Shown here: piece by piece, positions 1,676-33,235 of the stretch
Position numbering within the stretch: position 1 is the first letter of the stretch
How the letters are laid out: each line of letters opens with the position of its first letter
DNA from: a virus
DNA: 44,138 nucleotides
Virus record (IMG/VR): IMGVR_UViG_3300036785_000416
Span: 1 to 44,138 of that record
Strand: one strand, 5' to 3'
Notes under the pieces: model-generated
Database searches by the model: none
What the model saw: the letters and a program-made list of their open reading frames with translations, nothing else
What the model was told of the DNA's origin: nothing
Made by a program: the position numbers and the translations under genes

Positions 1676-2202
1676 GGCGTGGAGACTGCCAACTGCACCA
1701 TGCCGCTGCCGAGCTGTGCGCCCGAAGCGAAGCCCGTTGCGACCACGCCGTAGAAGCTGTTTGCCGGGACCGCCACACTGCCGCTAAACATGGATTGACT
1801 GGTGTTGATCGTGCCGTTGGCGTTGCATGGCGTCGTGCTGATCTTGGTGCCGCTGCCGAGCGCCGTGCCGCTCGCTGCATAGTAAACATCGAGGCTGGCC
1901 GTGCCGCCGGCTGCGACATTGCCGATTATGCAGACCGCCGCCACCGCAGTCGATGCCGCCCCGGTCTGCCCCATCGGCAGGGTGTTGGTCGCCAGGTTCT
2001 GCCCCGGTCCCCAGGTCAACTGGAAGATCCTGCTGACGCCCGAGCCGCTGTCTTGTATGCCGAGCCCGTCGCTGGTAGCAGTCACCAGGTGCCCCGAGGT
2101 GAACGGCGGTGTCAGCATGTAGGGCGCGCGAGTGTCGGCGGCGTAGGCGATCACTGCAGCCAGCGCAGCCACACACACGGCACCAAGTAGGAACTGTTTC
2201 AT
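1672..2202 (-). CDS. Secreted protein of unknown function, 176 aa
   Basis: Start ATG 2202 has a GAGGT ribosome site about 6 nt upstream; longer upstream readings lack one. The first 21 residues (MKQFLLGAVCVAALAAVIAY) form a Sec signal peptide with likely cleavage after an AYA motif. The mature part is small, rich in Gly/Ala/Ser/Thr and contains two well separated cysteines (CIIGN and TTPC) that could form a disulfide after export. No family was recognised. It lies between two other signal-peptide genes and its stop overlaps the next start. Confidence 0.75.
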   Translation of the reverse strand: MKQFLLGAVCVAALAAVIAYAADTRAPYMLTPPFTSGHLVTATSDGLGIQDSGSGVSRIFQLTWGPGQNLATNTLPMGQTGAASTAVAAVCIIGNVAAGGTASLDVYYAASGTALGSGTKISTTPCNANGTINTSQSMFSGSVAVPANSFYGVVATGFASGAQLGSGMVQLAVSTP

Positions 2203-2210
2203 TCGAAACC

Positions 2211-2414
2211 TCAATGGCACGCGATGACGATGCCGTCCGTGACGGTCGCCCCGGCGATAACGATGCTGACACCGGGCGTGGCTCCGATGATCACACCCTG
2301 CGGGCACACCGGACCGACCGCGCCGCCGGTCGGCATCAGCAGGATAAAGGCGTCCGCCGACATCGACACCAGCAGCACCCCCATCAAAAGAACTAGCGAA
2401 ACGAGACGTTGCAT
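2211..2414 (-). CDS. Small exported or membrane protein, 67 aa
   Basis: ATG 2414 is preceded by GGAG at 7 nt. The N-terminal 25 residues are strongly hydrophobic (LVSLVLLMGVLLVSMSADAF), fitting a signal peptide cleaved after ADA or an anchor. The remainder is also hydrophobic and glycine-rich with two cysteines. The gene starts inside the end of its upstream neighbour (22 nt overlap). It could be a small secreted peptide or a holin-like membrane protein; nothing distinguishes these. Confidence 0.65.
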   Translation of the reverse strand: MQRLVSLVLLMGVLLVSMSADAFILLMPTGGAVGPVCPQGVIIGATPGVSIVIAGATVTDGIVIACH

Positions 2415-3421
2415 CGCCCCGCTCCCGCAGTTATCGGTCCGCCGGTGACCTTAGCGCCGATCCAGTAGTTGGCCGGCACAACAGTAGGTACAGTCGTCAG
2501 CAGGTTCGCGCTCTCGGTCCCCGCTGCCGATGTCACCATGTTAAAGGATGACGATATCGCCGTCCCGGCTCCAATCAACCCACTTGCCGTCTGCTGGTAG
2601 AATTGCATCGAGCCGGCGTTCGACACGACATCGTTCTGGCACCGGATCGCATACACGGTGCGCGGCGTCGCTGTCCGCCCAACACCAAACCCGTTGGTCG
2701 CCGTGCTCAGATCCATCCCCGGCAGCCAAGCAAACGGGAAGTACTGCACCGGACCCATCGGAACGCTCAGCGCGTTGGCCCCACCATTCACGACAAGACT
2801 TTGCGTATCGGCCGGGAACGCCACCGCACCGCCTGCTGCCGTGCTGCCTTCAATCAATCCCGTATTGATTTGATCCACCGCATTTGGCGTCAGTGTGGCC
2901 TGTACCCCCACCGTGGCGAGGTTCACCCCACCCTGGTTGGGCAATGTGCTCACGGCAGGAAACGTCAAATTGCACCCTGCGGCGATGCACACGAAGGTCT
3001 GCCCGTAGGTCCACTCGGCGACGGTCACCGGATGAGCGCCGGAGAGAACCGTGATCCCGCCCGTCACGCCGCCGAGCACAAACCCGGTGCCGGCCGTATT
3101 GACTTGGAGACACTGGTACCCGGTCAGCTCACCGCCGCCCAGCGCCACCAGCCCGGTGGGCACCACTTGCCGCTGAACCGGCAGCGCGGGCAACTTGCCG
3201 TCCACAGAAACCGCGGCGGCACCCGTATTCGGCGTGGTGAAATTGGCGCAGACGATGTCCATCGCGACGTTGTTGAACCCACCACCCGTTGTGACGGTCT
3301 GCGCGTTCGCCGTTCCACCGACAGCAGTAGCCGTGAACAGGTGAGGCCGGCCGGCCACCGCCTGGGCATGGGCGGCCTGCGTCGCCAGACATAGCGCCAA
3401 TGCGAGAGCAAGCAGTTTCAT
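2393..3421 (-). CDS. Secreted protein of unknown function, 342 aa
   Basis: ATG 3421 overlaps the preceding stop as ATGA. A textbook signal peptide (MKLLALALALCLATQAAHAQ) is followed by a long Gly/Ala/Thr/Val-rich beta-type sequence with scattered cysteines. The tail fibre-like gene just upstream and the exported proteins downstream suggest a surface-interaction role. No enzymatic motif was found. The presence of a cleavable signal on a protein encoded among virion genes is unusual. Confidence 0.75.
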   Translation of the reverse strand: MKLLALALALCLATQAAHAQAVAGRPHLFTATAVGGTANAQTVTTGGGFNNVAMDIVCANFTTPNTGAAAVSVDGKLPALPVQRQVVPTGLVALGGGELTGYQCLQVNTAGTGFVLGGVTGGITVLSGAHPVTVAEWTYGQTFVCIAAGCNLTFPAVSTLPNQGGVNLATVGVQATLTPNAVDQINTGLIEGSTAAGGAVAFPADTQSLVVNGGANALSVPMGPVQYFPFAWLPGMDLSTATNGFGVGRTATPRTVYAIRCQNDVVSNAGSMQFYQQTASGLIGAGTAISSSFNMVTSAAGTESANLLTTVPTVVPANYWIGAKVTGGPITAGAGRCNVSFR

Positions 3422-4014
3422 GGGACGGTGTACCACTGAGTAGCCGTCACAGCCACCAAAAGAGCGGTCGTATCGGCCGGCACGATGACGGGAGCATTAG
3501 CAGCCAGCGCGTTGATGGCGGCGCCGGAGGCCGGATACAGCGACAAGGCGCTAGTCAAACTGTTGCGGACATAGTAATGCGCGCCGACCGCTGGCACTGG
3601 AAGCGCCACACCACCACTGCCGAGTGTGACTGCGTTGATCACGGCGGTGAGCCCCGTCGCTCCACCCTGAGTGGTCCCGGCAGCTGTAACTGCAGCATTC
3701 ACGGTATCCGCAGTGGGGGCGCTGGTCGGCGGCGCCTGCCAGCTGCCGTCACCCCGCCAGAACGTCGTATTGCTGGCCCCCACCCCACCAGCGAGATTAG
3801 CCGGCGGCACATTGCCGAGCCCGATCGTGCCACTGGCAGTGATCGTGCCACCAGTCAGCGGCGCCGCTGCGGTGATGCTAGTAACGGTGCCACCGCTTGG
3901 CGCTGCGTTCTGCAGCGCGGTGATCTCGTTATGGGCAGCCAGGAAGTTGGCGCGGACCGACGCCGTTGTCGGAGTGCCGGTCACCGGCATAGTCGGGTCT
4001 ATCGCTGAAGCCAT
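3418..4014 (-). CDS. Tail fibre-like protein, 198 aa
   Basis: The protein contains TTFWRGDGSWQAP near residue 85, matching the F(L/W)RGDG(T/S)W element repeated in many phage tail fibres. It is rich in Ala, Thr, Val and Gly and lacks a signal peptide. The N-terminus (SAIDPTMPVTGTPTTASVRA) resembles the start of other appendage proteins that place a short adapter before a beta-structured shaft. Its stop overlaps the start of the exported 342-aa protein. Role as a fibre or appendage protein is inferred from this motif and position. Confidence 0.7.
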   Translation of the reverse strand: MASAIDPTMPVTGTPTTASVRANFLAAHNEITALQNAAPSGGTVTSITAAAPLTGGTITASGTIGLGNVPPANLAGGVGASNTTFWRGDGSWQAPPTSAPTADTVNAAVTAAGTTQGGATGLTAVINAVTLGSGGVALPVPAVGAHYYVRNSLTSALSLYPASGAAINALAANAPVIVPADTTALLVAVTATQWYTVP

Positions 4015-4023
4015 GCGCCCACC

Positions 4024-4206
4024 TCAATCCCAAACCGAAGCGCCGCCGTCCCACACCGAAGCGCCGCCGTCCCAAACGCTGCCCGTGACCGGTGGAGCGA
4101 GCCCCTCTTGCAGATTAGTCCAGGTGCTCAACGGCACGAACACCGGCACCGGCAGCGTCGGTATGTAGTCCCCACTGGTGTCACTACGAGGTTGTTCTCC
4201 ACTCAT
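4024..4206 (-). CDS. Small protein with a C-terminal SVWDGGA tandem repeat, 60 aa
   Basis: ATG 4206 overlaps the stop of the upstream HNH gene as ATGA. The C-terminus is three near copies of a seven-residue unit (SVWDGGA twice, ending SVWD). The rest is proline-rich. The following gene starts 9 bp downstream. Repeats ending in Trp-Asp are unusual; the protein could be a small appendage linker. The family is not recognised. Confidence 0.6.
   Translation of the reverse strand: MSGEQPRSDTSGDYIPTLPVPVFVPLSTWTNLQEGLAPPVTGSVWDGGASVWDGGASVWD
4029..4077. repeat. 21-bp tandem repeat within the 60-aa gene
   Basis: Two 21-bp units (4029-4049 and 4050-4070) differ at one base, and a partial third unit ends near 4077. 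The unit length is a multiple of three, so copy-number change would add or remove one seven-residue block without a frameshift. Confidence 0.85.
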
Positions 4207-4715
4207 TGCGGGGTGGGTTCCTGGTGGCGCTTGGCGCGTTTCGCCTGCTTGGCAGCCTTGTCGCGCGCGTGCGCCCTCTCGGGGTTCAGCACCCGGTCAC
4301 GGCGTGCTCGGGCTGCCATACAGGCGCGGCAGACCCGTTCTTGTCCGCTCCGGCGGTAGATCACCAGGGTGTTCTCGGCATTGAACTCGTGACCGTTGAC
4401 ACAGTGACTTTTCCTGCGTCCTGTGTTTGAACCACGCCTTGTATTCTCCTTGTGCGTCACCGGCTCCATGTGGAGTGGATTGATGCAACGCCGGTTCTTG
4501 CACGTGTGGTCCAGCTGCAATCCTTCTGGTATTGGTCCAATCAGCATCATGTAGAGCACACGATGGGCTCTAGTGGTACCATAATGGGTACGTTGATCCG
4601 AGACAGCATAGCCATCGCGATCGAGGTACCCCTGCCATTCCCAGCACCCGTTTTCAGTGGGTAGGCATTTCGCAACCAAGTGTTTATAGGTTATCGAGGG
4701 AGGTCCACTAGTCAT
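4203..4715 (-). CDS. HNH homing endonuclease, free-standing
   Basis: 170 residues from ATG 4715. An N-terminal GCWEWQGYLDRDGY motif (about residues 23-36) is followed by an HNH core LDHTCKNRRCINPLHMEPVT and a C-terminal zinc-ribbon-like part with CVNGHEF and VCRACM. These are hallmarks of the phage HNH_3 family of nicking or cutting endonucleases. It sits 16 bp after the connector gene and overlaps the next ORF. The ribosome site is weak. It resembles the HNH at 7303-7782 in architecture. The probable role is mobility at the head-tail gene junction. Confidence 0.93.
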   Translation of the reverse strand: MTSGPPSITYKHLVAKCLPTENGCWEWQGYLDRDGYAVSDQRTHYGTTRAHRVLYMMLIGPIPEGLQLDHTCKNRRCINPLHMEPVTHKENTRRGSNTGRRKSHCVNGHEFNAENTLVIYRRSGQERVCRACMAARARRDRVLNPERAHARDKAAKQAKRAKRHQEPTPQ

Positions 4716-4731
4716 TGCCGTTTCTACAACC

Positions 4732-5496
4732 CTATGGAGAGTACTTAACCCATGGGCTCGCCCAATAGGGGCCAACCTCCGCACTCGCGATCGACGGCAC
4801 ATCCCGACTGATCTCGATATCGGGCCTCGTATCATCCCGCTCGATCGCCTCATCGAGCTGTTCCTTCGCCAGCGCCTCGAAGTACGCCGCCCGATCGGCA
4901 CGCCCCAATGTCTTGAAGAAATACGCGAGCGCATAGTTGATCAACACATCGTCCTTATTCTCGAAGTCGCTGACTTGATCCTCGCTGGCGGGATCAAACG
5001 GTGTCGGGTACTGCGTAAACGACAACATCGCAGTGAACTGCAGGAACGGCGCCGGCACCATCGTGATGATGTTCCCGAACCGCTTATAGATGCTCGGCCA
5101 TCCCGGCGGTAGCCACTCCGGCGCCGGGTACTTCTGGTCGAACCACCGCCACGGCTTCTCCACGACCTTCCGCGACTGCCCCAAGGAGCCAATGGCTCCG
5201 GTTGGCGGCGGCGTCCCCGGCACCGGCTGCGAGCTGGTATCCAGCACTACGAACGAGTGGATCGTCTTCGTCCTCGGTGGCGGTATCAAATACTTGTCCA
5301 CCGCTGCATTCCTGGTGAAGTTCATCTGCGCGAACCCGATCTCCGACAGCTCGCTGAAGTCGTACGCCCTCGTGATCCGGCTCTGCGCCAAGTTCAGCAC
5401 CCGCGTGATCCGCACATCGGGGATATCACTGGGACTGCGATTGCCCAGCGCCGACCTCACCTCGTCTCTCAGATCCTCCTGTGCGAGAACCCCCAC
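4732..5496 (-). CDS. Head-to-tail connector/adaptor protein, 254 aa
   Basis: Starts at GTG 5496 with GGAG about 10 nt upstream. The N-terminal helical part (LRDEVRSALGNRSPSDIPDV, then NLAQSRITRAYDF) is typical of podovirus tail accessory or adaptor proteins that seal the portal. A central part carries a PAPEWLPPGWPSIYKRFG segment and a C-terminal acidic helix. Its position after the capsid genes supports this role. The sequence around the start forms a hairpin (5497-5519). Assignment is by pattern and position only. Confidence 0.7.
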   Translation of the reverse strand: MGVLAQEDLRDEVRSALGNRSPSDIPDVRITRVLNLAQSRITRAYDFSELSEIGFAQMNFTRNAAVDKYLIPPPRTKTIHSFVVLDTSSQPVPGTPPPTGAIGSLGQSRKVVEKPWRWFDQKYPAPEWLPPGWPSIYKRFGNIITMVPAPFLQFTAMLSFTQYPTPFDPASEDQVSDFENKDDVLINYALAYFFKTLGRADRAAYFEALAKEQLDEAIERDDTRPDIEISRDVPSIASAEVGPYWASPWVKYSP

Positions 5497-5852: not shown

Positions 5853-6308
5853 TCAGTCGGGAAACATGGCGTACATCACGATCGGCGCCGTCACATTGAC
5901 GATGAAGCCGACCGCCACAGCCGTGACCGCCGCCGGGATCGTCACCGCCTTGTTCGCCGCTGCCAACGTGGTCAAGCTGTTGCCCACGGCACCCGCCCCA
6001 AACGCCGTGCTCAGCGTCACCACCCCCCTTATCTGCACCCACCCATACGTCACCGACCCGAGCGGGTGTGCCACTGGTGCGACACCAGCTCCCACTGGGC
6101 TCGTAGTGCTGTCCACCGTCGTCATCGTCTGATCCGTCATCACATACGAGCACACATCCCCCACGGCGGTCGCCAACGTCCCGCTGAACCGCACGTACTT
6201 CCACGCCGCATTGTAGTCAAAGCGGATCGCGCCCAAGTACTCCTGCGGCGACGTATCAATATCGGTGACCGCCGTAGTGAAGCCTTGCATCCTCCCTGGA
6301 TTAGCCAT
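5853..6308 (-). CDS. Probable capsid decoration protein, 151 aa
   Basis: ATG 6308 lies 11 bp after the major capsid stop and has a GGGGG site. The protein (MANPGRMQGFTTAVTDIDTS) is beta-rich with many small residues, Gly/Ala/Val segments and alternating polar/nonpolar stretches. Phage cement or head-fibre proteins often directly follow the capsid gene and share this composition. A family assignment such as DUF2190 is possible but not established. Confidence 0.65.
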   Translation of the reverse strand: MANPGRMQGFTTAVTDIDTSPQEYLGAIRFDYNAAWKYVRFSGTLATAVGDVCSYVMTDQTMTTVDSTTSPVGAGVAPVAHPLGSVTYGWVQIRGVVTLSTAFGAGAVGNSLTTLAAANKAVTIPAAVTAVAVGFIVNVTAPIVMYAMFPD

Positions 6309-6319
6309 CGCAACGCCCC

Positions 6320-7309
6320 CTAATTGGTGTTGATGGTGTCGAGCACGCCGAGCACCCGTCTTCGGCTTGTGACAAACGAGCACGCCAATTCGACTTGCGC
6401 GGCCTTGTCGTTGGGCTGATTGGGGATCGCCTTCCACTCCGTCATGTCGAAGAAGTACATCGGATCATAGTGAAATTCGATGAACCTCGTATTCAGGAAG
6501 TACATCCTCTGCACCATGCTCGGCGTCCAGACCATCGGTATCCCTTTGAACGTCTGGTTCTGGAACCCCGCATCCGCCAAGCGCGTGTTGGTGATCCGCA
6601 GCATCGGCAGCACCGTGTCCTCGTACTGCTCGTACGAGTTCATGTCGCTCACGATGATATCCGGCTGATCCATCGCCCTATTGTTCATGCACAAATTCAG
6701 CAGATGCCGCATATTCGAGATCCCATACACCGCGAACGACTGGCCCGCCATCCCGATCGCCTGGCTCTGCCACCACGTATACACGCTCGGATCAATCCCA
6801 CCCGCATTGAACGCCGGGCTCGCCACATTGGCGCTGTCGGGCACCATGAACTGCAACCCGTCGAACGACGGCGCCGGCAAATTAGCAGCGCCCGAGCCCC
6901 CGGTCAGCGTCGTCTCCAGATTGGTGATCAAGCTCTCCTCGGTATTATTGAGCTTTGCATTGACCCAGTTGATGATCTGCGCATCCCCCGAGTTCTGCTG
7001 CTCGTCCACCCCGTACCGCATGACGTTGGCCACGAGGTAGCGCCACTGGTACTGGCCCACCGTCAAGAACCGGAAGTCACTCAGATCCACCGTGCCGCCC
7101 CGGCTGATCCATTGCACCGTCGTGTTCGTTCCGTACTCCAGATTGACTTCGAGGAACCGGCCCCCTCGGGTCGAGCGGAGCTTGCCTCGGTCCTTCAGCC
7201 AAAACCAGAATGGTGTCGCACTAAAGATGTTATCAAAAACCCCAGGCAACCTCTTCTGCCAGGTCGTCGTGTAAAGGTCGTCCAGGGCTTGGGTAAAACT
7301 ATTTACCAT
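6320..7309 (-). CDS. Major capsid protein
   Basis: 329 residues. ATG 7309 has a strong GGGGGAG ribosome site at 7 nt. Segments such as VNSFTQALDDLYTTTWQKRL at the start, WISRGGTVDLSDFRFLTVG and YQWRYLVANVMRYGVDEQQN are typical of an HK97-fold capsid subunit family common in environmental podoviruses. The C-terminus includes KAAQVELACSFVTSRRRVLG. It follows the scaffold, with an HNH gene between them that overlaps its start by 7 bp. Function is assigned from recognised sequence pattern, length and synteny. Confidence 0.9.
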   Translation of the reverse strand: MVNSFTQALDDLYTTTWQKRLPGVFDNIFSATPFWFWLKDRGKLRSTRGGRFLEVNLEYGTNTTVQWISRGGTVDLSDFRFLTVGQYQWRYLVANVMRYGVDEQQNSGDAQIINWVNAKLNNTEESLITNLETTLTGGSGAANLPAPSFDGLQFMVPDSANVASPAFNAGGIDPSVYTWWQSQAIGMAGQSFAVYGISNMRHLLNLCMNNRAMDQPDIIVSDMNSYEQYEDTVLPMLRITNTRLADAGFQNQTFKGIPMVWTPSMVQRMYFLNTRFIEFHYDPMYFFDMTEWKAIPNQPNDKAAQVELACSFVTSRRRVLGVLDTINTN

Positions 7310-7782
7310 TGTTTATCTCCCCCAAAAAGTGTATCGAGATCCACACCACCACTTTCAGCCTCTTTCAAGCGCTGATAGCGTGCCTTGTCTCGATCACTAG
7401 CGCACTTCTTACACATGCGCTTCCCGACGTATGTGTAGTAGCTCCCCTCGACGTAGGGATGGCCTCTAGAACACTCGGTCGCCTTGATCGCCGCATAGGC
7501 CCGACGCATATTCTCGGTACGCGTCACCAGTTCCAAATGTTCCGGGTTAATGCACGTCCGGTTTCGGCAAAGATGGTCGATTTGCATCTCTCGCGGGACC
7601 GCACCGTACATCAAGATGTACATGACCCTGTGAACCACGCGGGCACCAGTCTGGTTAGGCGACACATACCCGTACCCAGTACTGTCCTTCGCTCCCTGCC
7701 AGATCAAGCAGCCATCCTGGTCAGCGACGGTTCTAGCTCGCAGGTAGGGTATAGTATAGAGTATCCTATCTCCGGGTTTCAT
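7303..7782 (-). CDS. HNH homing endonuclease inserted before the capsid gene
   Basis: 159 residues with DGCLIWQGAKDSTGYGY near residue 23 and an HNH core IDHLCRNRTCINPEHLELVT. A C-terminal treble-clef-like part has CSRGHPY and CKKCASDRDKARYQ. It lies between scaffold and capsid genes and its last codons overlap the capsid start, so the insertion keeps capsid translation coupled to upstream translation. Insertion beside a conserved capsid gene is common for such free-standing elements. Confidence 0.93.
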   Translation of the reverse strand: MKPGDRILYTIPYLRARTVADQDGCLIWQGAKDSTGYGYVSPNQTGARVVHRVMYILMYGAVPREMQIDHLCRNRTCINPEHLELVTRTENMRRAYAAIKATECSRGHPYVEGSYYTYVGKRMCKKCASDRDKARYQRLKEAESGGVDLDTLFGGDKQW

Positions 7783-7786
7783 TCAC

Positions 7787-8476
7787 TCACAACTCCGACA
7801 AGGCTGGCAGTATTCCGGGATGTCTAGCCATAACTTCCTCGTAGGCCGCCCTGGTTGCTGCTTCGCCGGTGAGACGGGGCTCCGCCGCCTTCCCATTGCT
7901 CGGCGTTAAGCCGCCAAACGGTCGAGGCTTCGGAGGTGGAGGATTATACTTCGTATCCAGTTGTCCCGCCTTCGCCGGGTTGTTGGCCCTCGCCAACCTG
8001 TACACGTCTTGGAAGCCAAGGGTCGGATGCTGCTTCGCCAGCCCGATCATCTCGTCCTTCCAGTCCGCGAAATCCTTGTGCTGCGCCCTCAGATCCTTCA
8101 AGTCGAGGGTTGCGCGTGTCGTCACGACGTCGTTCTGCACAGTCGACATCTGGCGCACCACCGGGTCGAGCGCCTCCTTGATCGACTGCTGCACCATCGA
8201 TTGCAGGCTGCTTGTCGTATACGCGACCAACTCTGCATTCGACATCGTATCGAAGTCAGGCGCCACAGGCGCCGCCGGTTGCGGAGTGACGACCTCGCGG
8301 ATGGTGTCGAGCCTCGACCCCAGCGAGTTGTTGAGCTTGTCCAACCCGTCGACGAACTCTCGCCAATTCGGCGTCGGCACCGCGCCCGGCCCGGCGGTGT
8401 CGTTGCCGCCGCTCACCTCATTCGGGTTCTCGCCACTCGGAACGCCGCCAGTATTCTCGACGTGGTCTTCGCTCAT
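7787..8476 (-). CDS. Capsid scaffold protein
   Basis: 229 residues, acidic N-terminus (MSEDHVENTGGVPSGENPNE), then a long helical middle with coiled-coil-like spacing (FVDGLDKLNNSLGSRLDTIR; LQSMVQQSIKEALDPVVRQM) and a Pro-rich linker near residue 180. No cysteine or signal peptide. It lies between the portal region and the capsid gene, the standard position for scaffolds. The start overlaps the preceding stop as ATGA. Scaffolds diverge strongly, so the call rests on composition and position. Confidence 0.8.
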   Translation of the reverse strand: MSEDHVENTGGVPSGENPNEVSGGNDTAGPGAVPTPNWREFVDGLDKLNNSLGSRLDTIREVVTPQPAAPVAPDFDTMSNAELVAYTTSSLQSMVQQSIKEALDPVVRQMSTVQNDVVTTRATLDLKDLRAQHKDFADWKDEMIGLAKQHPTLGFQDVYRLARANNPAKAGQLDTKYNPPPPKPRPFGGLTPSNGKAAEPRLTGEAATRAAYEEVMARHPGILPALSEL

Positions 8477-28167: not shown

Positions 28168-29880
28168 GTGACTGGGCAGTGGATCGAAGAAGGAGATCCA
28201 AACTCACCTTTATACATTGTCGGCGAAGCCCCCGGCGAGCGCGAGGTCGCCCAGCGCCGCCCCTTCGTCGGCCCCTCCGGCCAGCTCCTCGACAGCTGCC
28301 TGCGCGAAGCCGGCCTATATCGCCGCGACTGTTTCCTCACCAACATCTGCCATGTGCGGCCCCCCACTTACCGGGACAAACACAACCGGAGAATAGACAA
28401 TGACATCGACCAGTTCTTCGCCACCGCTACTCAAGCAAAGCGAGAGGGTATCCCTCTCCATCTCAGCCGCTATCCCCGTGAACCGATCACGGCCGGCCTC
28501 GCTCGACTACAAACCCTTATCGGACAGCATCGCCCTCGCCTTATCATCGCTATGGGCAACACAGGGCTGTGGGGACTGGTCGGCGAAACTGGTATTACCA
28601 AATGGCGAGGTAGTACGTTTCTCGGGAAAACGGGAACACGAACAATCGCAACCTTTCACCCCGCTGATTGTCTCGCAAACAGAAGCCCCCACCACCGACC
28701 AATACTCGTTCATGACCTCACTCGCGCCCGACGAGAGCTAGACCACCCCAGCGAGCCCCCGCAATGGCGCTTTGTCGTCGCTCCGCTCCGACAAGACGTA
28801 AGAGACTGGCTTGGCGTCTTGGCCGAAGGCCAGCCATTGACTTGCGACATCGAGACCCGCAACGGCCAAGTCGCCTGTCTCGGGCTCGCAAGCTCGCCCG
28901 AGACAGCACTCTGCATCCCCTTCATGAGAGCGCAACCCGGCGACAATGGGCACTCCTACTGGAGCCTAGACGACGAGTGCCACATCGTCGCTTTACTCCA
29001 ACAAATCCTCTCCACACACCCGACCACGTGGCACAATGGCTTATTCGATTGCCAGTACCTCGCCCGCCAATGGGCCTTCGGCCCATGCTACCACGATGAC
29101 ACGATGGTGATGCAGCATGTCGCGTTCCCTGGCCTCCTGGGTGGAAAGATTGACCCAGTCAGCGGGCGCACCGATAAAAGAGGCAGCTCTCTCTCACTTA
29201 GTTTCATCGCCTCTCTCTACTGTCGCCATTACCGTCATTGGAAAGATGACGGACGGCTCTTCGATCCATCTCAACATGATGAGGGACAACTCTGGTCGTA
29301 TAACTGTGAGGACGCTTGTCGTACCCACGAATGCAAGACGGCCCTTCGGGCCGTGCTGGAGCGTGCCGACCTGATCGACCAATATCGCTTCGAGATGTCG
29401 TGCATCCCACTCACGCTCCGAATGATGTGGCGCGGGCTCGCCGTCGCCCACGATGAAATGAAGGCCCAACACGCCGCCATCCTCACCGAGAAGTATGAAA
29501 CCGGCATCTGGCTCGACATCGCCACCGGCTGCGACTTCAACCCCGAAAGCACCCCGCAAATGCGCGCTCTCTTCTACAACGACTTGGCGCTGCCCACCCG
29601 TCTCGACAAGCACACCCGCCAGCCCTCCCTCAAGGACCACGACCTCACCCAGATCACTCGCCAGTGGCCCCTGACCCGCCCACTTATCGAGAAGATCCAG
29701 CTGTTTCGCACCCTCGACACCATCAAGGACAGTGTCGATCCCGCTTGTCTCTCCCCCGATGGCCGCCTGCGCACTGCCCTCAACCCCGCCTATGTCGAGA
29801 CATTCCGCTTCAGCTCGAACGAAACCGCCTTCGGCGAAGGTCACAATTTACAGAATATAGCGCGACCACCGGAGGACTAA
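28168..29880 (+). CDS. UDG/3'-5' exonuclease/polymerase thumb fusion (split DNA polymerase, part 1)
   Basis: 570 residues from GTG 28168 (GGAG 8 nt upstream). Residues ~10-190 are a family-4 uracil-DNA glycosylase domain: GEAPGEREVAQRRPFVGPSG at 19-38 and TFHPA near 162. Residues ~215-400 are a DnaQ-type exonuclease: CDIET (D227, E229), HNGLFD (N290, D294) and YNCED (Y378, D382). Residues ~400-564 match the family-A thumb to the LQNI motif at 561-564. The palm is absent; the ORF stops seven residues later and palm and fingers are encoded separately at 32498-33235. UDG-like domains are known on some phage polymerases. Splitting at this point is unusual. Confidence 0.93.
   Translation: MTGQWIEEGDPNSPLYIVGEAPGEREVAQRRPFVGPSGQLLDSCLREAGLYRRDCFLTNICHVRPPTYRDKHNRRIDNDIDQFFATATQAKREGIPLHLSRYPREPITAGLARLQTLIGQHRPRLIIAMGNTGLWGLVGETGITKWRGSTFLGKTGTRTIATFHPADCLANRSPHHRPILVHDLTRARRELDHPSEPPQWRFVVAPLRQDVRDWLGVLAEGQPLTCDIETRNGQVACLGLASSPETALCIPFMRAQPGDNGHSYWSLDDECHIVALLQQILSTHPTTWHNGLFDCQYLARQWAFGPCYHDDTMVMQHVAFPGLLGGKIDPVSGRTDKRGSSLSLSFIASLYCRHYRHWKDDGRLFDPSQHDEGQLWSYNCEDACRTHECKTALRAVLERADLIDQYRFEMSCIPLTLRMMWRGLAVAHDEMKAQHAAILTEKYETGIWLDIATGCDFNPESTPQMRALFYNDLALPTRLDKHTRQPSLKDHDLTQITRQWPLTRPLIEKIQLFRTLDTIKDSVDPACLSPDGRLRTALNPAYVETFRFSSNETAFGEGHNLQNIARPPED
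28772..28794 (+). repeat. Loop-core hairpin in polymerase coding
   Basis: Six-bp perfect arms TTGTCG and CGACAA with core TCGCTCCGCTC. Confidence 0.7.
29070..29086. repeat. TTC-loop palindrome in polymerase coding
   Basis: ATGGGCC-TTC-GGCCCAT. A second copy type, ACGGCCC-TTC-GGGCCGT, lies at 29338-29354 in the same gene. Confidence 0.65.
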
Positions 29881-30017
29881 TGCGCGGATCAGTTGTAAGA
29901 TGGTCACCGGAAGAATTAAGCGGCTGGGTTACACTCGACGAAAACGGGTGCTGGATATGGCAGGGAAATATATCACCAATCACGCAGAAAGCCGCCAAAC
30001 ATACAGGAGTTGTTCAA
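29881..30017 (+). pseudogene. Truncated HNH endonuclease remnant at the polymerase break
   Basis: ATG 29881 overlaps the polymerase stop as TAATG and has a GGAGG site 4 nt upstream. The first residues (VVRWSPEELSGWVTLDENGC then WIWQGN) match the N-terminal 'GCW(E/I)WQG' region of the intact HNH proteins here. The HNH core and zinc part are missing; after about residue 28 the sequence diverges and runs into the following gene. It looks like the remnant of a homing element inserted in the polymerase gene. Confidence 0.7.
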
Positions 30018-30290
30018 ATGATCAGCCCCCACGAGTACCTCCGCTGCGTCGGCGACAGCTACACGCAAGTCCGCGACGTGCAAGGTCGACTGCTCGGCTG
30101 CATTCCTCGCATCGCGGACAACGTCGAAGGCATCCGCGCCTCTGACGGCACTCCCTACCCGGTCCGCATCGCTGCCGTGGCGTGCCTCTGCGTCCCCGAC
30201 GACGTCGACCCCAGGACGCTACCGCAGTTCACCCCGCTCGACCTCGGCCGCAATGCCGACCTCGCCCTCCCCCCACGGGTAGAACCATGA
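30018..30290 (+). CDS. Unknown protein, 90 aa
   Basis: ATG 30018 has AGGAG 9 nt upstream, so it is preferred over reading through from the HNH remnant in the same frame. The protein is beta-rich with acidic residues (YLRCVGDSYTQVRDVQGRLL, GTPYPVRIAAVACLCVPDDV). It ends with an ATGA overlap. Unknown role in the replication block. Confidence 0.65.
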   Translation: MISPHEYLRCVGDSYTQVRDVQGRLLGCIPRIADNVEGIRASDGTPYPVRIAAVACLCVPDDVDPRTLPQFTPLDLGRNADLALPPRVEP

Positions 30291-30469
30291 GACACCTCAC
30301 ACCGAAACACAAGGAAGCATGGCTCAGGGGCTACCAAGACGGTCTAAAGCCTAGACTTGAAGAGCCTCGCAAAGTAATTCCACCCACCGATCTCACCAGC
30401 GACGAAGCATGGGACTACACTTCAGGCTTCATCGCTGGGGACCGCCTAGCCCCCAAAAAGGCTCCCTAG
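30287..30469 (+). CDS. Unknown small protein, 60 aa
   Basis: ATGA overlap with the previous gene. Contains KHKEAWLRGYQDGLKPR and SDEAWDYTSGFIAGDRLA, two similar 'W..GY..G' segments. Function unknown. The exonuclease gene starts 2 bp after it. Confidence 0.65.
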   Translation: MRHLTPKHKEAWLRGYQDGLKPRLEEPRKVIPPTDLTSDEAWDYTSGFIAGDRLAPKKAP

Positions 30470-30471
30470 AC

Positions 30472-31095
30472 ATGCTCCTCTTCGTCGATTGTGAAACCAC
30501 CGGCATCCCCAACTTCAACCGCCCTTGGGACTGGTCCGAGCAACCTCGCCTCGTCCAGCTAGCCGCTTTGCTGGTCGCTTCGCTCCCAGCAAAGGACGGC
30601 GAGTACCAGCAGATCCGCGAACTCAACTACATCATCCGCCCCGCCGGCTGGACTATTCCCCCCAAGGTTGCCGCCATCCACGGCGTCACCACAGAGCGGG
30701 CCCTCGCCTTCGGCGTCCCACTCGATCACGCCATGTCCAAGTTTCAAGGCATGCTCGTCGATGCCGACGAACTCGGCGTCGGAGGCAAGATCATCGCCCA
30801 CAACCTCCAATTCGACACTCACATCCTACTCGCTGAACTTAACCATTGCGGCATGCCACTGGCCCCCTTCGGATTGCTCCGTCCTTTCTGCACCATGCGC
30901 ACCCTCACCAACAGGATGAGACTGCCCGGCGGACCACGAGGCGAATACAAATGGCCCACCCTCGACGAAGCTTGGAGGTTCATACACCCCGATCGGCCTC
31001 CGGCCGATCCTGCAGCACGCCATACCGCAATGGGCGACGTCGTCATGTGCCGCGACGTCTACCTCAGCGGCCTCGAACGCGGCTGGTGGCCATGA
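30472..31095 (+). CDS. DnaQ-like 3'-5' exonuclease
   Basis: 207 residues with LLFVDCETTGIPNF as Exo I (D6, E8), IIAHNLQFDTHILLAEL as Exo II and RHTAMGDVVMCRDVY as the Exo IIIepsilon HxxxxD. This is the DEDDh proofreading exonuclease family (DNA polymerase III epsilon-like). The polymerase fragment at 28168 has its own exonuclease domain, so this protein likely works separately, for example in DNA repair, degradation or RNA processing. A 9-bp-arm hairpin (30566-30594) lies within the gene. Confidence 0.9.
   Translation: MLLFVDCETTGIPNFNRPWDWSEQPRLVQLAALLVASLPAKDGEYQQIRELNYIIRPAGWTIPPKVAAIHGVTTERALAFGVPLDHAMSKFQGMLVDADELGVGGKIIAHNLQFDTHILLAELNHCGMPLAPFGLLRPFCTMRTLTNRMRLPGGPRGEYKWPTLDEAWRFIHPDRPPADPAARHTAMGDVVMCRDVYLSGLERGWWP
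30566..30594 (+). repeat. Loop-core hairpin with 9-bp arms, in exonuclease coding
   Basis: CTTTGCTGG and CCAGCAAAG flank TCGCTTCGCTC. It is the longest perfect arm pair in the family and lies wholly in codons. Confidence 0.8.
30991..31009. repeat. TCC-loop palindrome in exonuclease coding
   Basis: GATCGGCC-TCC-GGCCGATC, the same arms as the element at 27895-27913 with one loop change. Confidence 0.7.
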
Positions 31096-31102
31096 GGCTC
31101 GC

Positions 31103-31129
31103 CATGAGGCTCGCTACGCTAGCCTCATG
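31103..31129. repeat. Loop-core hairpin after the exonuclease gene
   Basis: Perfect 8-bp arms CATGAGGC and GCCTCATG with core TCGCTACGCTA. A second CATGAGGCTCG copy lies just upstream at 31091. Confidence 0.75.
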
Positions 31130-31154
31130 CAGCTTCCACACGTAAGGAACCACA

Positions 31155-31394
31155 ATGGCCATCGAACGGTGGACACCCCGGCGCAAAGTAGCACTCCTCA
31201 ACGACCTCGCCACCGGCCGCACCACCCAGGAAGCTGTCCTTCGCCTGTACAACGTATCCCCCGACGAAATCGCCGAGTGGATACGCGCCTACCACCATGA
31301 CGGCCTGCCCGGCCTTCGCACCACTCGCACCCAGGAGCGCCGCCCCCGCCACTTCCTCCGATCGCCTCGCTCCGCTCGCCGATCACCCACATAG
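31155..31394 (+). CDS. SciP/DUF1153-like transcription regulator
   Basis: 79 residues from ATG 31155, with AAGGA about 7 nt upstream. RWTPRRKVALLNDLATGRTT through LYNVSPDEIAEWIRAYHHDG and GLRTTRTQERR follow the helix-turn-helix pattern of alphaproteobacterial SciP (DUF1153), including the terminal GL-x-LRTTR signature. In Caulobacter, SciP restrains activation by the cell-cycle regulator CtrA. A phage copy could modify host cell-cycle transcription or control phage genes. The C-terminal ~20 residues are encoded partly by a loop-core hairpin and are not conserved family sequence. Confidence 0.8.
   Translation: MAIERWTPRRKVALLNDLATGRTTQEAVLRLYNVSPDEIAEWIRAYHHDGLPGLRTTRTQERRPRHFLRSPRSARRSPT
31360..31384. 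repeat. Loop-core hairpin at the end of the SciP-like gene
   Basis: Core TCGCTCCGCTC at 31367-31377; outer GATCG and CGATC arms pair, with mismatches next to the core. Confidence 0.55.
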
Positions 31395-31395
31395 C

Positions 31396-31426
31396 TTCCA
31401 CAGAACATCCACAGACTTGTCCACAG
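31396..31426. other. Three TCCACAG boxes (DnaA-box-like)
   Basis: TTCCACAG (31396), ATCCACAG (31407) and GTCCACAG (31419) are 11 and 12 bp apart, about one helical turn. TTGTCCACA at 31417-31425 equals a DnaA box form known from some high-GC bacteria. Such spacing suggests cooperative protein binding. Confidence 0.55.
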
Positions 31427-31432
31427 CCCATA

Positions 31433-31475
31433 GAACGTTTCAGGCACATCCAATGAACGTTCCGCTATATCCAAT
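31433..31475. repeat. Two iteron-like repeats
   Basis: GAACGTT-(8)-ATCCAAT at 31433-31454 and GAACGTT-(7)-ATCCAAT at 31455-31475 are adjacent direct repeats of 22 and 21 bp with conserved ends. Confidence 0.7.
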
Positions 31476-31827
31476 GATGACGAGCGGTTGTGTCACAGAG
31501 AATGTTTCGGGATCTTGCAGCATAATCCATGCACTGGCGTCACTCGGGGCGTCGCCCGCAATGCCGGTCCCATCGGCAAGCCCCCGCAACCCCTCAGGGC
31601 TACCCAACGGCCAATTATGCAGCTTGTGCGCACATCCTCACCACCTCGAGCTGCACCCGGACATCTGCCAAATGCCGGCCGTAAAAACGTCTCCAACCTT
31701 TTTCACCTTCGGGAGGAAAAAGGAGCCTCTCCAGTGCGCGGAGAGGCTACTACGGAGAATGTCCACCTGCCAAAGCCAGAGACGTTTTTACGGCCGGCAT
31801 TTGGCAGATCACGAGGAGCAACCATGA
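31453..31827 (+). CDS. Doubtful ORF across the structured locus, 124 aa
   Basis: From ATG 31453 the frame ends ATGA over the next gene, and has a Cys/His cluster (CSLCAHPHHLELHPDIC). However, it covers the iterons and both arms of the 31-bp inverted repeat, is low in recognisable structure, and two other frames are also open. It may be a true zinc-binding small protein or only an open frame in GC-rich non-coding DNA. Confidence 0.25.
   Translation: MNVPLYPMMTSGCVTENVSGSCSIIHALASLGASPAMPVPSASPRNPSGLPNGQLCSLCAHPHHLELHPDICQMPAVKTSPTFFTFGRKKEPLQCAERLLRRMSTCQSQRRFYGRHLADHEEQP
31663..31809. repeat. 31-bp inverted repeat with nested hairpins
   Basis: 31663-31693 is the exact reverse complement of 31779-31809. 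Inside are an AGCCTCTCC/GGAGAGGCT hairpin (9-bp stem, 31724-31748) and an imperfect CCTTTTTC/GAAAAAGG hairpin with a CTTCGG-type tip (about 31697-31722). The folded form would be a long stem with two side hairpins. It may be an origin structure, a small non-coding RNA or a miniature element. It ends 14 bp before the next start codon. Confidence 0.9.
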
Positions 31828-32102
31828 CCTACTTCGCCGTCCAAGTCCACTACCTCAACGGTCTCAAGGACAGGTTGGCCTGGGAGGACGTCTTGACCAG
31901 CACCAACAGCGATTTGGCAGCAAACTATGCCAAGCGACACAACGGTGAAGGGCTTGGAGTTCTACGAGTAGTACGCCTAGAAGGCAAATGGCCTCACGCC
32001 AACCACCCCAATAACCCCGCATCCTGCGTACACTTCATCCACGAGGTCGAGGCATCCGCCTGGGCCAAACGGCTAGAAAACCAGAGGTTCATATACCCAT
32101 GA
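31824..32102 (+). CDS. Unknown protein, 92 aa
   Basis: ATG 31824 with GAGGAG about 6 nt upstream. Beta-rich start (MTYFAVQVHYLNGLKDRLAW), then mixed, ending in a Trp-containing helix. The stop overlaps the next start as ATGA. No family recognised. Confidence 0.65.
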   Translation: MTYFAVQVHYLNGLKDRLAWEDVLTSTNSDLAANYAKRHNGEGLGVLRVVRLEGKWPHANHPNNPASCVHFIHEVEASAWAKRLENQRFIYP

Positions 32103-32308
32103 CCCGCCTCAAGCCTGACTTCGACCCTCGTTGCGCCAAGCTCGTTGAGCATTTCTTCCCTGACGCCCCGATTGACTTCCAATGCGATCTCGCCGACCGC
32201 ATCCAAGACCTGATCGAAGCCGCCGCCGAAGACCTCGCCGACCGCTACCAGTCCAGCTGGGCCACCATGAGCGAGGGCATGCGCCGCTACCGCCGCCAAG
32301 AAAGCTGA
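32099..32308 (+). CDS. Unknown protein, 69 aa
   Basis: Helical and acidic protein (HFFPDAPIDFQCDLADRIQD, LIEAAAEDLADRYQSSWATM) resembling small accessory proteins of phage replication clusters. The next gene starts 1 bp after its stop. Confidence 0.65.
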   Translation: MTRLKPDFDPRCAKLVEHFFPDAPIDFQCDLADRIQDLIEAAAEDLADRYQSSWATMSEGMRRYRRQES

Positions 32309-32309
32309 T

Positions 32310-32501
32310 ATGACCGAGTTGACTGCTGATCGCTTCATCGTATCCAGCAAGGAACTTGCCGAGTTATGGCAAGTCTACGGCATCGACGAAAGAGACGCGG
32401 GCAAAGACATAACCCTCCACGAATTCGACTTCATCCGACTGATGGTATCCCTCTATATAGCGAGAGGCATGGTACCACCACCAATCACATGGGCGCGATG
32501 A
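32310..32501 (+). CDS. Unknown protein, 63 aa
   Basis: Helical protein (DRFIVSSKELAELWQVYGID) with an acidic middle and a Pro-rich end. Its stop overlaps the palm gene start as ATGA, so the polymerase part 2 is likely coupled to it. It might help the two polymerase parts associate, but there is no direct evidence. Confidence 0.6.
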   Translation: MTELTADRFIVSSKELAELWQVYGIDERDAGKDITLHEFDFIRLMVSLYIARGMVPPPITWAR

Positions 32502-33235
32502 CCTTACCCAACATCCGCCGGACCATCGTCCCCGATCCGGGGATGGTACTGGTCGAGATCGACCTGAAGCAAGCCGACGCCCAGATCGTCGCATGGGCGA
32601 GCAACGATGAACCGCTCAAGTCGCTGTTTCGCCAGGGGGTTGATATATACACTGAACGACAAACCGGCATCTGGAGTGATCCAAGCCTGCCTTCATCTAG
32701 ACAGATCCGAAAGAACTGCATTCACTCCGTCAATTACGGAGCAGCATATCGTACTCTGGCCGAACGGTACGTGGGTACTGAAGCGGCCGCTCGCCACTTC
32801 ATCGACACTTGGTTCTCCCACCACCTCGCCATTCGCGAGTGGCAGCGCCGGATCGAGTGGGAAATGACCCAATCCCGTACCCCTTCGATCCGAAACATCT
32901 ACGGCTATCGCCGCCTATACGCCTGCCCCACCCCATTGACCCAGCCACTAGCGTGGTTGGGTCAATCTACCGTCGCCAGGGTGAACAAAGAAATGCTCTT
33001 AGCTCTCGCTACGCTCGAACCAACAGTTCAAATTCTCATGCCGCACCACGACAGCGTCCTTCTACAAGTCCCTGTCGGGCTTACGCCCGACATCTTTCCC
33101 AAGTTGCTTGAACTCTGTGCCATCACTGTCCCCTACAAGGATGATCCCCTTGTCATCCCATGTGACCTCAAATACAGCGACCAATCCTGGGGCGACATGC
33201 TAAGCTGGTCGCCGGAGGCGACCAATGCTGATTGA
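32498..33235 (+). CDS. DNA polymerase A palm and fingers (split polymerase, part 2)
   Basis: 245 residues from ATG 32498 (ATGA overlap). It begins LPNIRRTIVPDPGMVLVEID, the sequence that follows the LQNI motif in intact phage polymerases. Motif A has D22 and D27 (EIDLKQADAQIVAW), motif B has RQIRKNCIHSVNYGAAY (K72, Y80, G81) and motif C is PHHDSVLLQVP. All catalytic residues are present, so the enzyme may be active if the parts assemble. The 3' end overlaps the next gene by 11 bp. It lies 2.6 kb from part 1. Confidence 0.93.
   Translation: MTLPNIRRTIVPDPGMVLVEIDLKQADAQIVAWASNDEPLKSLFRQGVDIYTERQTGIWSDPSLPSSRQIRKNCIHSVNYGAAYRTLAERYVGTEAAARHFIDTWFSHHLAIREWQRRIEWEMTQSRTPSIRNIYGYRRLYACPTPLTQPLAWLGQSTVARVNKEMLLALATLEPTVQILMPHHDSVLLQVPVGLTPDIFPKLLELCAITVPYKDDPLVIPCDLKYSDQSWGDMLSWSPEATNAD
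33073..33092. repeat. GGGC-TTAC-GCCC palindrome in palm gene
   Basis: TGTCGGGC-TTAC-GCCCGACA with perfect 8-bp arms near motif C. Confidence 0.65.
33206..33224. repeat. GGA-loop palindrome ending at a start codon
   Basis: TGGTCGCC-GGA-GGCGACCA; the right arm ends one base before ATG 33225, so the start of the next gene is adjacent to a stem. Confidence 0.65.

What the first reader, a model, noticed from the sequence alone, without database searches (positions are those of the whole stretch)
28168..33235. Family-A DNA polymerase split into two genes with seven genes and an HNH scar between the halves
Part 1 (28168-29880) ends seven residues after the LQNI motif; part 2 (32498-33235) starts LPNIRRTIVPDPG, the sequence that normally follows. 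All thumb, exonuclease and palm motifs are kept, so the split appears functional. An HNH N-terminal remnant begins at the stop of part 1. HNH elements in phage polymerase genes are known, such as I-HmuI. Here the apparent product is a two-subunit or trans-spliced polymerase with other genes, including a second exonuclease, inserted in the gap.
Basis: partly seen in the sequence, partly recalled or inferred. Interest (0 to 1): 0.9.

Follow-up and report, generated by a model that had tools for sequence, protein, structure and literature searches.

The report
Phage DNA polymerase made as two proteins
This phage, and about two in five of the sampled relatives, encode their DNA-copying enzyme as two separate proteins cut at the same flexible loop; the cut arose or was undone many times in evolution, so the enzyme probably works as a two-part machine, with unrelated genes parked between the two halves.

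Summary
A UDG / 3'-5' exonuclease / family A polymerase is split at 29880: part 1 (28168-29880) ends ...NLQNIARPPED, and part 2 (32498-33235) starts MTLPNIRRTIVPD. Seven genes and an HNH remnant lie between them. It is not a private accident. Of 119 non-redundant relatives, 69 are intact and 50 are split at this same junction, with gaps from -32 to 2608 nt; one is a cultured Vibrio phage. The split is polyphyletic: 12 state changes on the best tree, at least 7 forced, AU p = 8e-5 against one clade. Both halves keep the catalytic residues and are under purifying selection in split relatives. No other family A polymerase was found in 14 split contigs. The junction is the least ordered internal loop of an AlphaFold model of an intact relative. 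No intron signal was found (a known intron was detected as control), and there is no room for intein halves. About ten split loci have no insert: the cistrons abut or overlap, with a Shine-Dalgarno sequence in the part 1 tail. Best reading: a non-covalent two-chain polymerase, made by recurrent fission in a permissive palm loop, with cargo genes collecting at the junction. HNH insertion is one possible route, not the general cause. Activity was not tested.

The parts
28168..29880 (+). polymerase part 1: UDG-like domain (about 28189-28692), 3'-5' exonuclease, thumb and first part of palm up to NLQNIARPPED
   Evidence: exo and motif 1 residues kept
29871..29875 (+). Shine-Dalgarno sequence GGAGG inside the last codons of part 1, serving the ATG that overlaps its stop (TAATG at 29878-29882)
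29880..30017 (+). HNH endonuclease N-terminal remnant (MRGSVVRWSPEELSGWVTLDENGCWIWQG...), no HNH core left; reads in frame into the next gene
30018..30290 (+). gap gene 1, 90 aa, unknown; AGGAG just upstream; similar ORFs by eye in the gaps of L093 and L014
30287..30469 (+). gap gene 2, 60 aa, unknown, ATGA overlap
30472..31095 (+). gap gene 3, DEDDh (DnaQ-like) exonuclease, present in the gap of most of the window's nearer relatives
31155..31394 (+). gap gene 4, DUF1153 / SciP-like helix-turn-helix protein
31824..32102 (+). gap gene 5, unknown
32099..32308 (+). gap gene 6, unknown
32310..32501 (+). gap gene 7, unknown; its stop overlaps the start of part 2 (ATGA)
32498..33235 (+). polymerase part 2: rest of palm and fingers with motifs A, B and C (alternative start 32489)
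   Evidence: AlphaFold pLDDT 95.3, pTM 0.89; Foldseek to KlenTaq E 4e-13

Best explanation
The phage makes its replicative family A polymerase as two polypeptides that fold together without a covalent link. Part 1 brings the UDG-like domain, the proofreading exonuclease, the thumb and the strand and minor-groove residues up to NLQN. Part 2 brings the rest of the palm and the fingers with all three catalytic motifs. The break lies in a variable, weakly ordered loop of the palm (KG/GG-rich in intact relatives), which tolerates breakage. In this family the gene has been broken there repeatedly (and perhaps sometimes re-joined). The Lys/Gly-rich loop codons resemble a Shine-Dalgarno site, so a stop plus a nearby start is enough to make two translationally coupled cistrons. 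The junction then collects cargo genes (here an exonuclease, a SciP-like regulator, small genes and a decayed HNH gene) without harming either half. Shown: the same-site split in 50 of 119 loci, its polyphyly, conservation, purifying selection in split relatives, no other polymerase found, no intron signal, loop position. Inferred: physical assembly, activity, and fission before cargo.
For: Same junction in 50 of 119 non-redundant loci, gaps -32 to 2608 nt, including the cultured Vibrio phage VS-ABTNL-3. Intact homologues run straight through it. Polyphyly: 12 changes, at least 7 forced by starred branches; AU test rejects one clade, p 7.8e-5. Columns 95% conserved in intact enzymes are kept at 94% in split ones; catalytic residues are kept in the split sequences that cover them, apart from one exo III tyrosine (H in 1 of 49) and one motif B tyrosine (F or L in 5 of 50). 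dN/dS about 0.04-0.23 in both halves of split pairs where it could be estimated. Only the two complementary PF00476 pieces in the window and at most two in 14 split relatives; no PolB or PolC in the window. Junction loop is the lowest-confidence internal part of the intact model, pLDDT 76-77 against mean 93.6. Part 2 is predicted to fold confidently alone. Split tails carry a stronger Shine-Dalgarno site than synonymous shuffles (p 3e-6); intact loops do not (p 0.26). ATGA/TAATG overlaps at the end of part 1 are common. Distances of the halves correlate (r 0.31, above all 500 permutations). Precedent: split gp43A/43B of T4-like phage 25 co-purify and are active (PMC2988022).
Against: No complex was modelled and nothing was expressed. 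The window's part 2 departs from some near-invariant positions (Q to P before the HD motif, P to G in PQSTV), so loss of activity in this one phage is not excluded. No close relative (over about 55% identity) of the window was found, so selection could not be measured on the window genes themselves. The start of part 2 has no clear Shine-Dalgarno site and would rely on the ATGA overlap. The correlation of the halves is weaker in split than in intact genes (0.31 against 0.49).
Confidence: 0.85

Rival explanations
1. HNH homing endonuclease invasion broke the gene in this lineage; the endonuclease then decayed and other genes followed. The halves still assemble.
For: HNH remnant starts exactly at the stop of part 1. 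HNH-like genes lie in the gaps of some relatives (L015, L017, L115, L095, L096). The mechanism is known for nrdA of phage Aeh1 (PMC2988022).
Against: Clade mates L103 and L056 are split with overlap or a 5-nt gap and no HNH. Most gaps hold other genes (dUTPase, exonuclease, Lon-like, unknown).
Confidence: 0.2
2. A self-splicing intron (group I or II), perhaps with its core spread over the 2.6 kb, joins the exons at the RNA level.
For: Group I introns with HNH genes sit in polymerase genes of SPO1, Bastille and Pf-WMP3 (PMC11878797, PMC3428280).
Against: No Rfam intron match in the window at gathering or permissive thresholds, nor in split relatives, while the Pf-WMP3 intron is found permissively at E 4e-6. 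About ten split loci have no insert at all. The gap holds seven mostly tightly packed genes.
Confidence: 0.03
3. The window's polymerase is a decaying pseudogene pair and the phage relies on the host polymerase.
For: Some departures from near-invariant sites in part 2.
Against: Both frames fully open over 570 and about 245 codons; catalytic residues kept; the same arrangement is stable and under purifying selection in relatives.
Confidence: 0.07
4. Protein trans-splicing by a split intein joins the halves.
For: Apparent inteins occur elsewhere in this family (L031, L149, L153, L154), and split inteins in fractured phage polymerase genes are known (PMC6892783).
Against: Part 1 ends six residues past LQNI and part 2 starts two to five residues before LPN; there is no intein sequence on either terminus.
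Confidence: 0.01

Closest known systems
Methylophilales (OM43) phages MEP401/MEP402, Zobellviridae-like (PMC10580990)
   Same: Family A polymerase encoded by two ORFs with a small unknown ORF between; most group I relatives likewise
   Different: Break lies about a dozen residues further on (FLSRYGE* | MILNAD); no UDG domain named on ORF13; authors suggested an intron, for which I found no Rfam signal
T4-like Aeromonas phages 25 and 44RR gp43A/gp43B (PMC2988022)
   Same: Replicative polymerase in two chains (co-purifying and active in phage 25); endonuclease or untranslated spacer between
   Different: Family B polymerase; a few related phages; no multi-gene cargo described in that review
Aeromonas phage Aeh1 nrdA split by mobE (PMC2988022)
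   Same: Functional enzyme in pieces after insertion of a homing endonuclease
   Different: Different enzyme; one event; a full endonuclease present
UDG-PolA of Pseudomonas phage PaBG and relatives (PMC7412058)
   Same: UDG, 3'-5' exonuclease and polymerase domain order
   Different: Single intact gene, jumbo myovirus
Group I introns with HNH genes in phage polymerases (SPO1, Bastille, Pf-WMP3; PMC11878797, PMC3428280)
   Same: HNH element interrupts a phage polymerase gene
   Different: RNA splicing restores one protein; intron core detectable there, not here
Vibrio phage VS-ABTNL-3 PVS_29/PVS_27 (MF497422)
   Same: Same break site, one gene between
   Different: Deep branch; different gap gene; the record annotates the halves separately without comment

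Membership tests
family A DNA polymerase (UDG-PolA subgroup) | exo triad region, motif 1, motifs A, B and C, Klenow fold | tested here: met
   fold of an intact relative aligns to Klenow 324-928, Z 35.6
two-chain (genes-in-pieces) phage enzyme | two complementary ORFs covering one enzyme without loss, with intact relatives | tested here: met
two-chain (genes-in-pieces) phage enzyme | the two chains associate and are active | not testable with these tools
   needs co-expression; only conservation and selection were shown
split by homing endonuclease insertion | endonuclease gene at the break that caused the break | tested here: inconclusive
   HNH remnant present, but clade mates are split without an insert
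group I/II intron-interrupted polymerase gene | conserved intron core RNA spanning the interruption | tested here: not met
   with positive control; a very divergent intron would be missed
split intein / fractured gene | intein N part fused to the end of part 1 and C part to the start of part 2 | tested here: not met
   termini read directly; no extra sequence

The most novel reading that the evidence does not exclude
The two-chain form is not merely tolerated but selected. Recurrent same-loop fission gives these phages a heterodimeric replicative polymerase whose halves can be made, regulated or exchanged separately (for example part 1 acting alone as a UDG/exonuclease), with the intercistronic junction serving as a standing site for gene acquisition.
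Probability: 0.15. Interest if true: 0.85.

Novelty: new variant of a known kind. Interest (0 to 1): 0.62.

Why it matters
Split phage polymerases are known as isolated cases, usually put down to an inserted element. Here one polymerase family shows the same break in 13 separate groups on the tree (or about six to eight breaks with several re-joinings, taking the root as intact), at one loop inside the catalytic palm and often with no inserted element. That makes gene fission and fusion testable as a natural experiment, marks a loop where family A polymerases might be divided (useful for split-polymerase designs), and shows a junction where phages gather nucleotide-metabolism and regulatory genes.

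Tried and rejected
Rfam scans for introns in the window, ten loci and MEP401 found none; the control was found only in the permissive mode, so the gathering-mode negatives weigh little. Pfam at E up to 10 on the HNH remnant gave nothing, so that identification rests on motif and weak tblastn evidence. One-clade origin of the split was rejected. The hypothesis that intact genes carry a selected internal ribosome site at the loop was not supported: the strong anti-Shine-Dalgarno match there is explained by amino-acid content. Recombination of the halves between lineages: the two trees agree on the core of the window clade but disagree for L056/L103/L107; left open. Direct scans with P0002 and P0001 alone found only two distant loci and none. 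No complex prediction was possible. A search for a 24-nt arm of the hairpin in viral contigs found none. The first automatic classification called L103, L116, L121 and L127 intact; reading them showed overlapping cistrons in different frames. Literature searches found no report of this recurrent site.
Full report
WHAT IS THERE. The window is an IMG/VR virus record of 44,138 bases. At 28168-29880 lies a 570-residue protein with a family 4 UDG-like domain, a 3'-5' exonuclease and the first part of a family A polymerase, ending NLQNIARPPED. At 32498-33235 (alternative start 32489) lies the rest: LPNIRRTIVPDPG, motif A (DLKQAD), motif B (R...K.......Y) and motif C (HHDS). The Pfam profile DNA_pol_A is shared out between them, 26-132 and 140-266, so nothing of note is missing at the break. 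No other family A, B or C polymerase was found in the window.

INTACT AND SPLIT RELATIVES. The Manatee Spring phage ctMlz233 (MW202489) and Microcystis phage Mel-JY34 have the same enzyme in one piece. Vibrio phage VS-ABTNL-3 has it in two pieces at the very same place, LNLQNLPKGDG* and ...CQLPNIKKLF, with one unknown gene between. Two scans of IMG/VR with alignments of the halves gave about 150 loci. After removing duplicates and near-identical rows, 119 were classified: 69 intact, 50 split at this junction. Gaps run from -32 (overlapping frames) to 2608 nt (this window). The sample is the best-scoring part of the hits for queries drawn from the window, so 42% is a sample proportion and not a population frequency.

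ONE EVENT OR MANY. On a tree of both halves with the junction columns left out, intact and split states need 12 changes, at least 7 of them forced by well-supported branches. A tree with all split forms in one clade is rejected (p-AU 7.8e-5). With the root taken as intact, this is 13 fissions with no fusion, or about six to eight fissions plus four to six fusions. The window belongs to a clade of 14 rows that are all split. That clade includes members with gaps of -4 (L103) and 5 nt (L056) as well as the multi-gene gaps.

WHY THIS PLACE. In intact enzymes the stretch between LQN and LPN(I/V)R is a loop of 2 to 53 residues, commonly IPKGG(D/E). By alignment to Klenow fragment, with residue numbers from general knowledge of E. 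coli Pol I, it is about residues 682-687. In an AlphaFold model of the intact relative L040 (mean pLDDT 93.6) it has no secondary structure and the lowest internal confidence, 76-77. The rest aligns to Klenow with Z 35.6. Part 2 alone is predicted with pLDDT 95.3 and pTM 0.89 and matches KlenTaq and Pol theta.

HOW THE TWO CISTRONS ARE READ. In the split forms the next start codon commonly overlaps or follows the stop of part 1 within a few bases (ATGA, TAATG), with a GGAGG/AAGGAG-like sequence in the last codons of part 1. This site is stronger than synonymous shuffles of the same residues in split genes (p 3e-6) but not in intact genes (p 0.26). The loop's residues by themselves give a Shine-Dalgarno-like sequence, which may ease fission; that last step is inference. 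In about ten split loci (L036, L056, L026, L030, L031, L066, L048, L103, L116, L127) part 2 itself begins at or within about 20 nt of the end of part 1, so no element is inserted.

ARE THE HALVES STILL USED. In columns conserved at 95% or more in intact enzymes, split ones keep the residue in 94% of cells. The catalytic residues are kept in the split sequences that cover them, except one exo III tyrosine (H in 1 of 49) and one motif B tyrosine (F or L in 5 of 50). Split pairs have dN/dS of 0.04-0.23 in both halves where it could be estimated, like intact controls. Fourteen split contigs hold no family A polymerase hits beyond these pieces. Distances of the two halves are correlated. The window's own part 2 departs at a few near-invariant sites, and no close relative allowed a selection test on it.

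WHAT LIES IN THE GAP. In the window: an HNH remnant, seven genes including a DEDDh exonuclease and a SciP-like (DUF1153) regulator, and a strong hairpin. In relatives, judged by eye from the translations: dUTPase-like (L061, L065, L067, L070, L074, L080), exonuclease (window clade), Lon-like (L082, L166), HNH-like (L015, L017, L115, L095, L096; HNH_3 confirmed by Pfam for L015 and L096), methyltransferase-like (L034) and unknowns. The junction therefore takes up many kinds of genes.

RIVALS. Introns: none found in the window, while the known Pf-WMP3 intron is found in the same permissive mode; splicing cannot apply where there is no insert. Inteins: none at the termini, though the family carries apparent inteins elsewhere (L031, L149, L153, L154). 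HNH-driven fission remains possible for this lineage but is not needed.

KNOWN SYSTEMS. Split phage polymerases are known: gp43A/43B of T4-like phage 25, whose chains co-purify and are active (PMC2988022), and the OM43 phages MEP401/402 (PMC10580990), whose break I place about a dozen residues downstream of this one. UDG-PolA fusions are known from PaBG (PMC7412058). I found no report of recurrent fission at one site or of this junction as a cargo site; the library searched lacks most subscription journals and preprint servers. The claim is therefore a new variant of a known kind. What is not shown is assembly and activity.

Noticed in passing
window 31652-31820: Inverted repeat with a perfect 31-bp stem (31663-31693 with 31779-31809) enclosing smaller hairpins; fold z-score -10.6; in a non-coding stretch before 31824. 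No exact copy of a 24-nt arm in IMG/VR. Unexplained (MITE-like or structured RNA).
   Followed up: partly
window 31155-31394: Small helix-turn-helix protein resembling SciP, the CtrA inhibitor of Alphaproteobacteria (NCBIfam 1.8e-12, below cut-off; DUF1153), which hints at an alphaproteobacterial host and cell-cycle meddling.
   Followed up: no
window 4203-4934 and 7303-7782, minus strand: Two apparently full HNH endonuclease genes with the same GC(W/L).WQG N-terminal motif as the remnant.
   Followed up: partly
L031, L149, L153, L154: Apparent inteins (hundreds of extra in-frame residues with C...HEVLT-like starts and ...VHN or VTGN ends) inside the polymerase at three other sites: exonuclease domain (L031), before STVA (L149), at motif B (L153, L154). 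L031 and L149 are also split.
   Followed up: partly
L008 (Caulobacter phage Kuura) 4950-8354; L010 (ctLwi270) 1727-4364; L054 3248-5602: The same enzyme is split at other places: within the exonuclease domain (Kuura, with two genes between; L054 overlapping) and between exonuclease and thumb (ctLwi270).
   Followed up: partly
L061, L065, L067, L070, L074, L080 gaps: dUTPase-like genes sit between the halves of a polymerase that itself carries a UDG-like domain; a uracil-related link is possible.
   Followed up: no
L170 (MEP401) 6111-8221: Published suggestion of an intron in this split polymerase: no Rfam intron signal found at 7000-7700.
   Followed up: yes
L049 5210-7708: Intact polymerase with a 53-residue linker at the junction; could be a re-joined split gene.
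   Followed up: no
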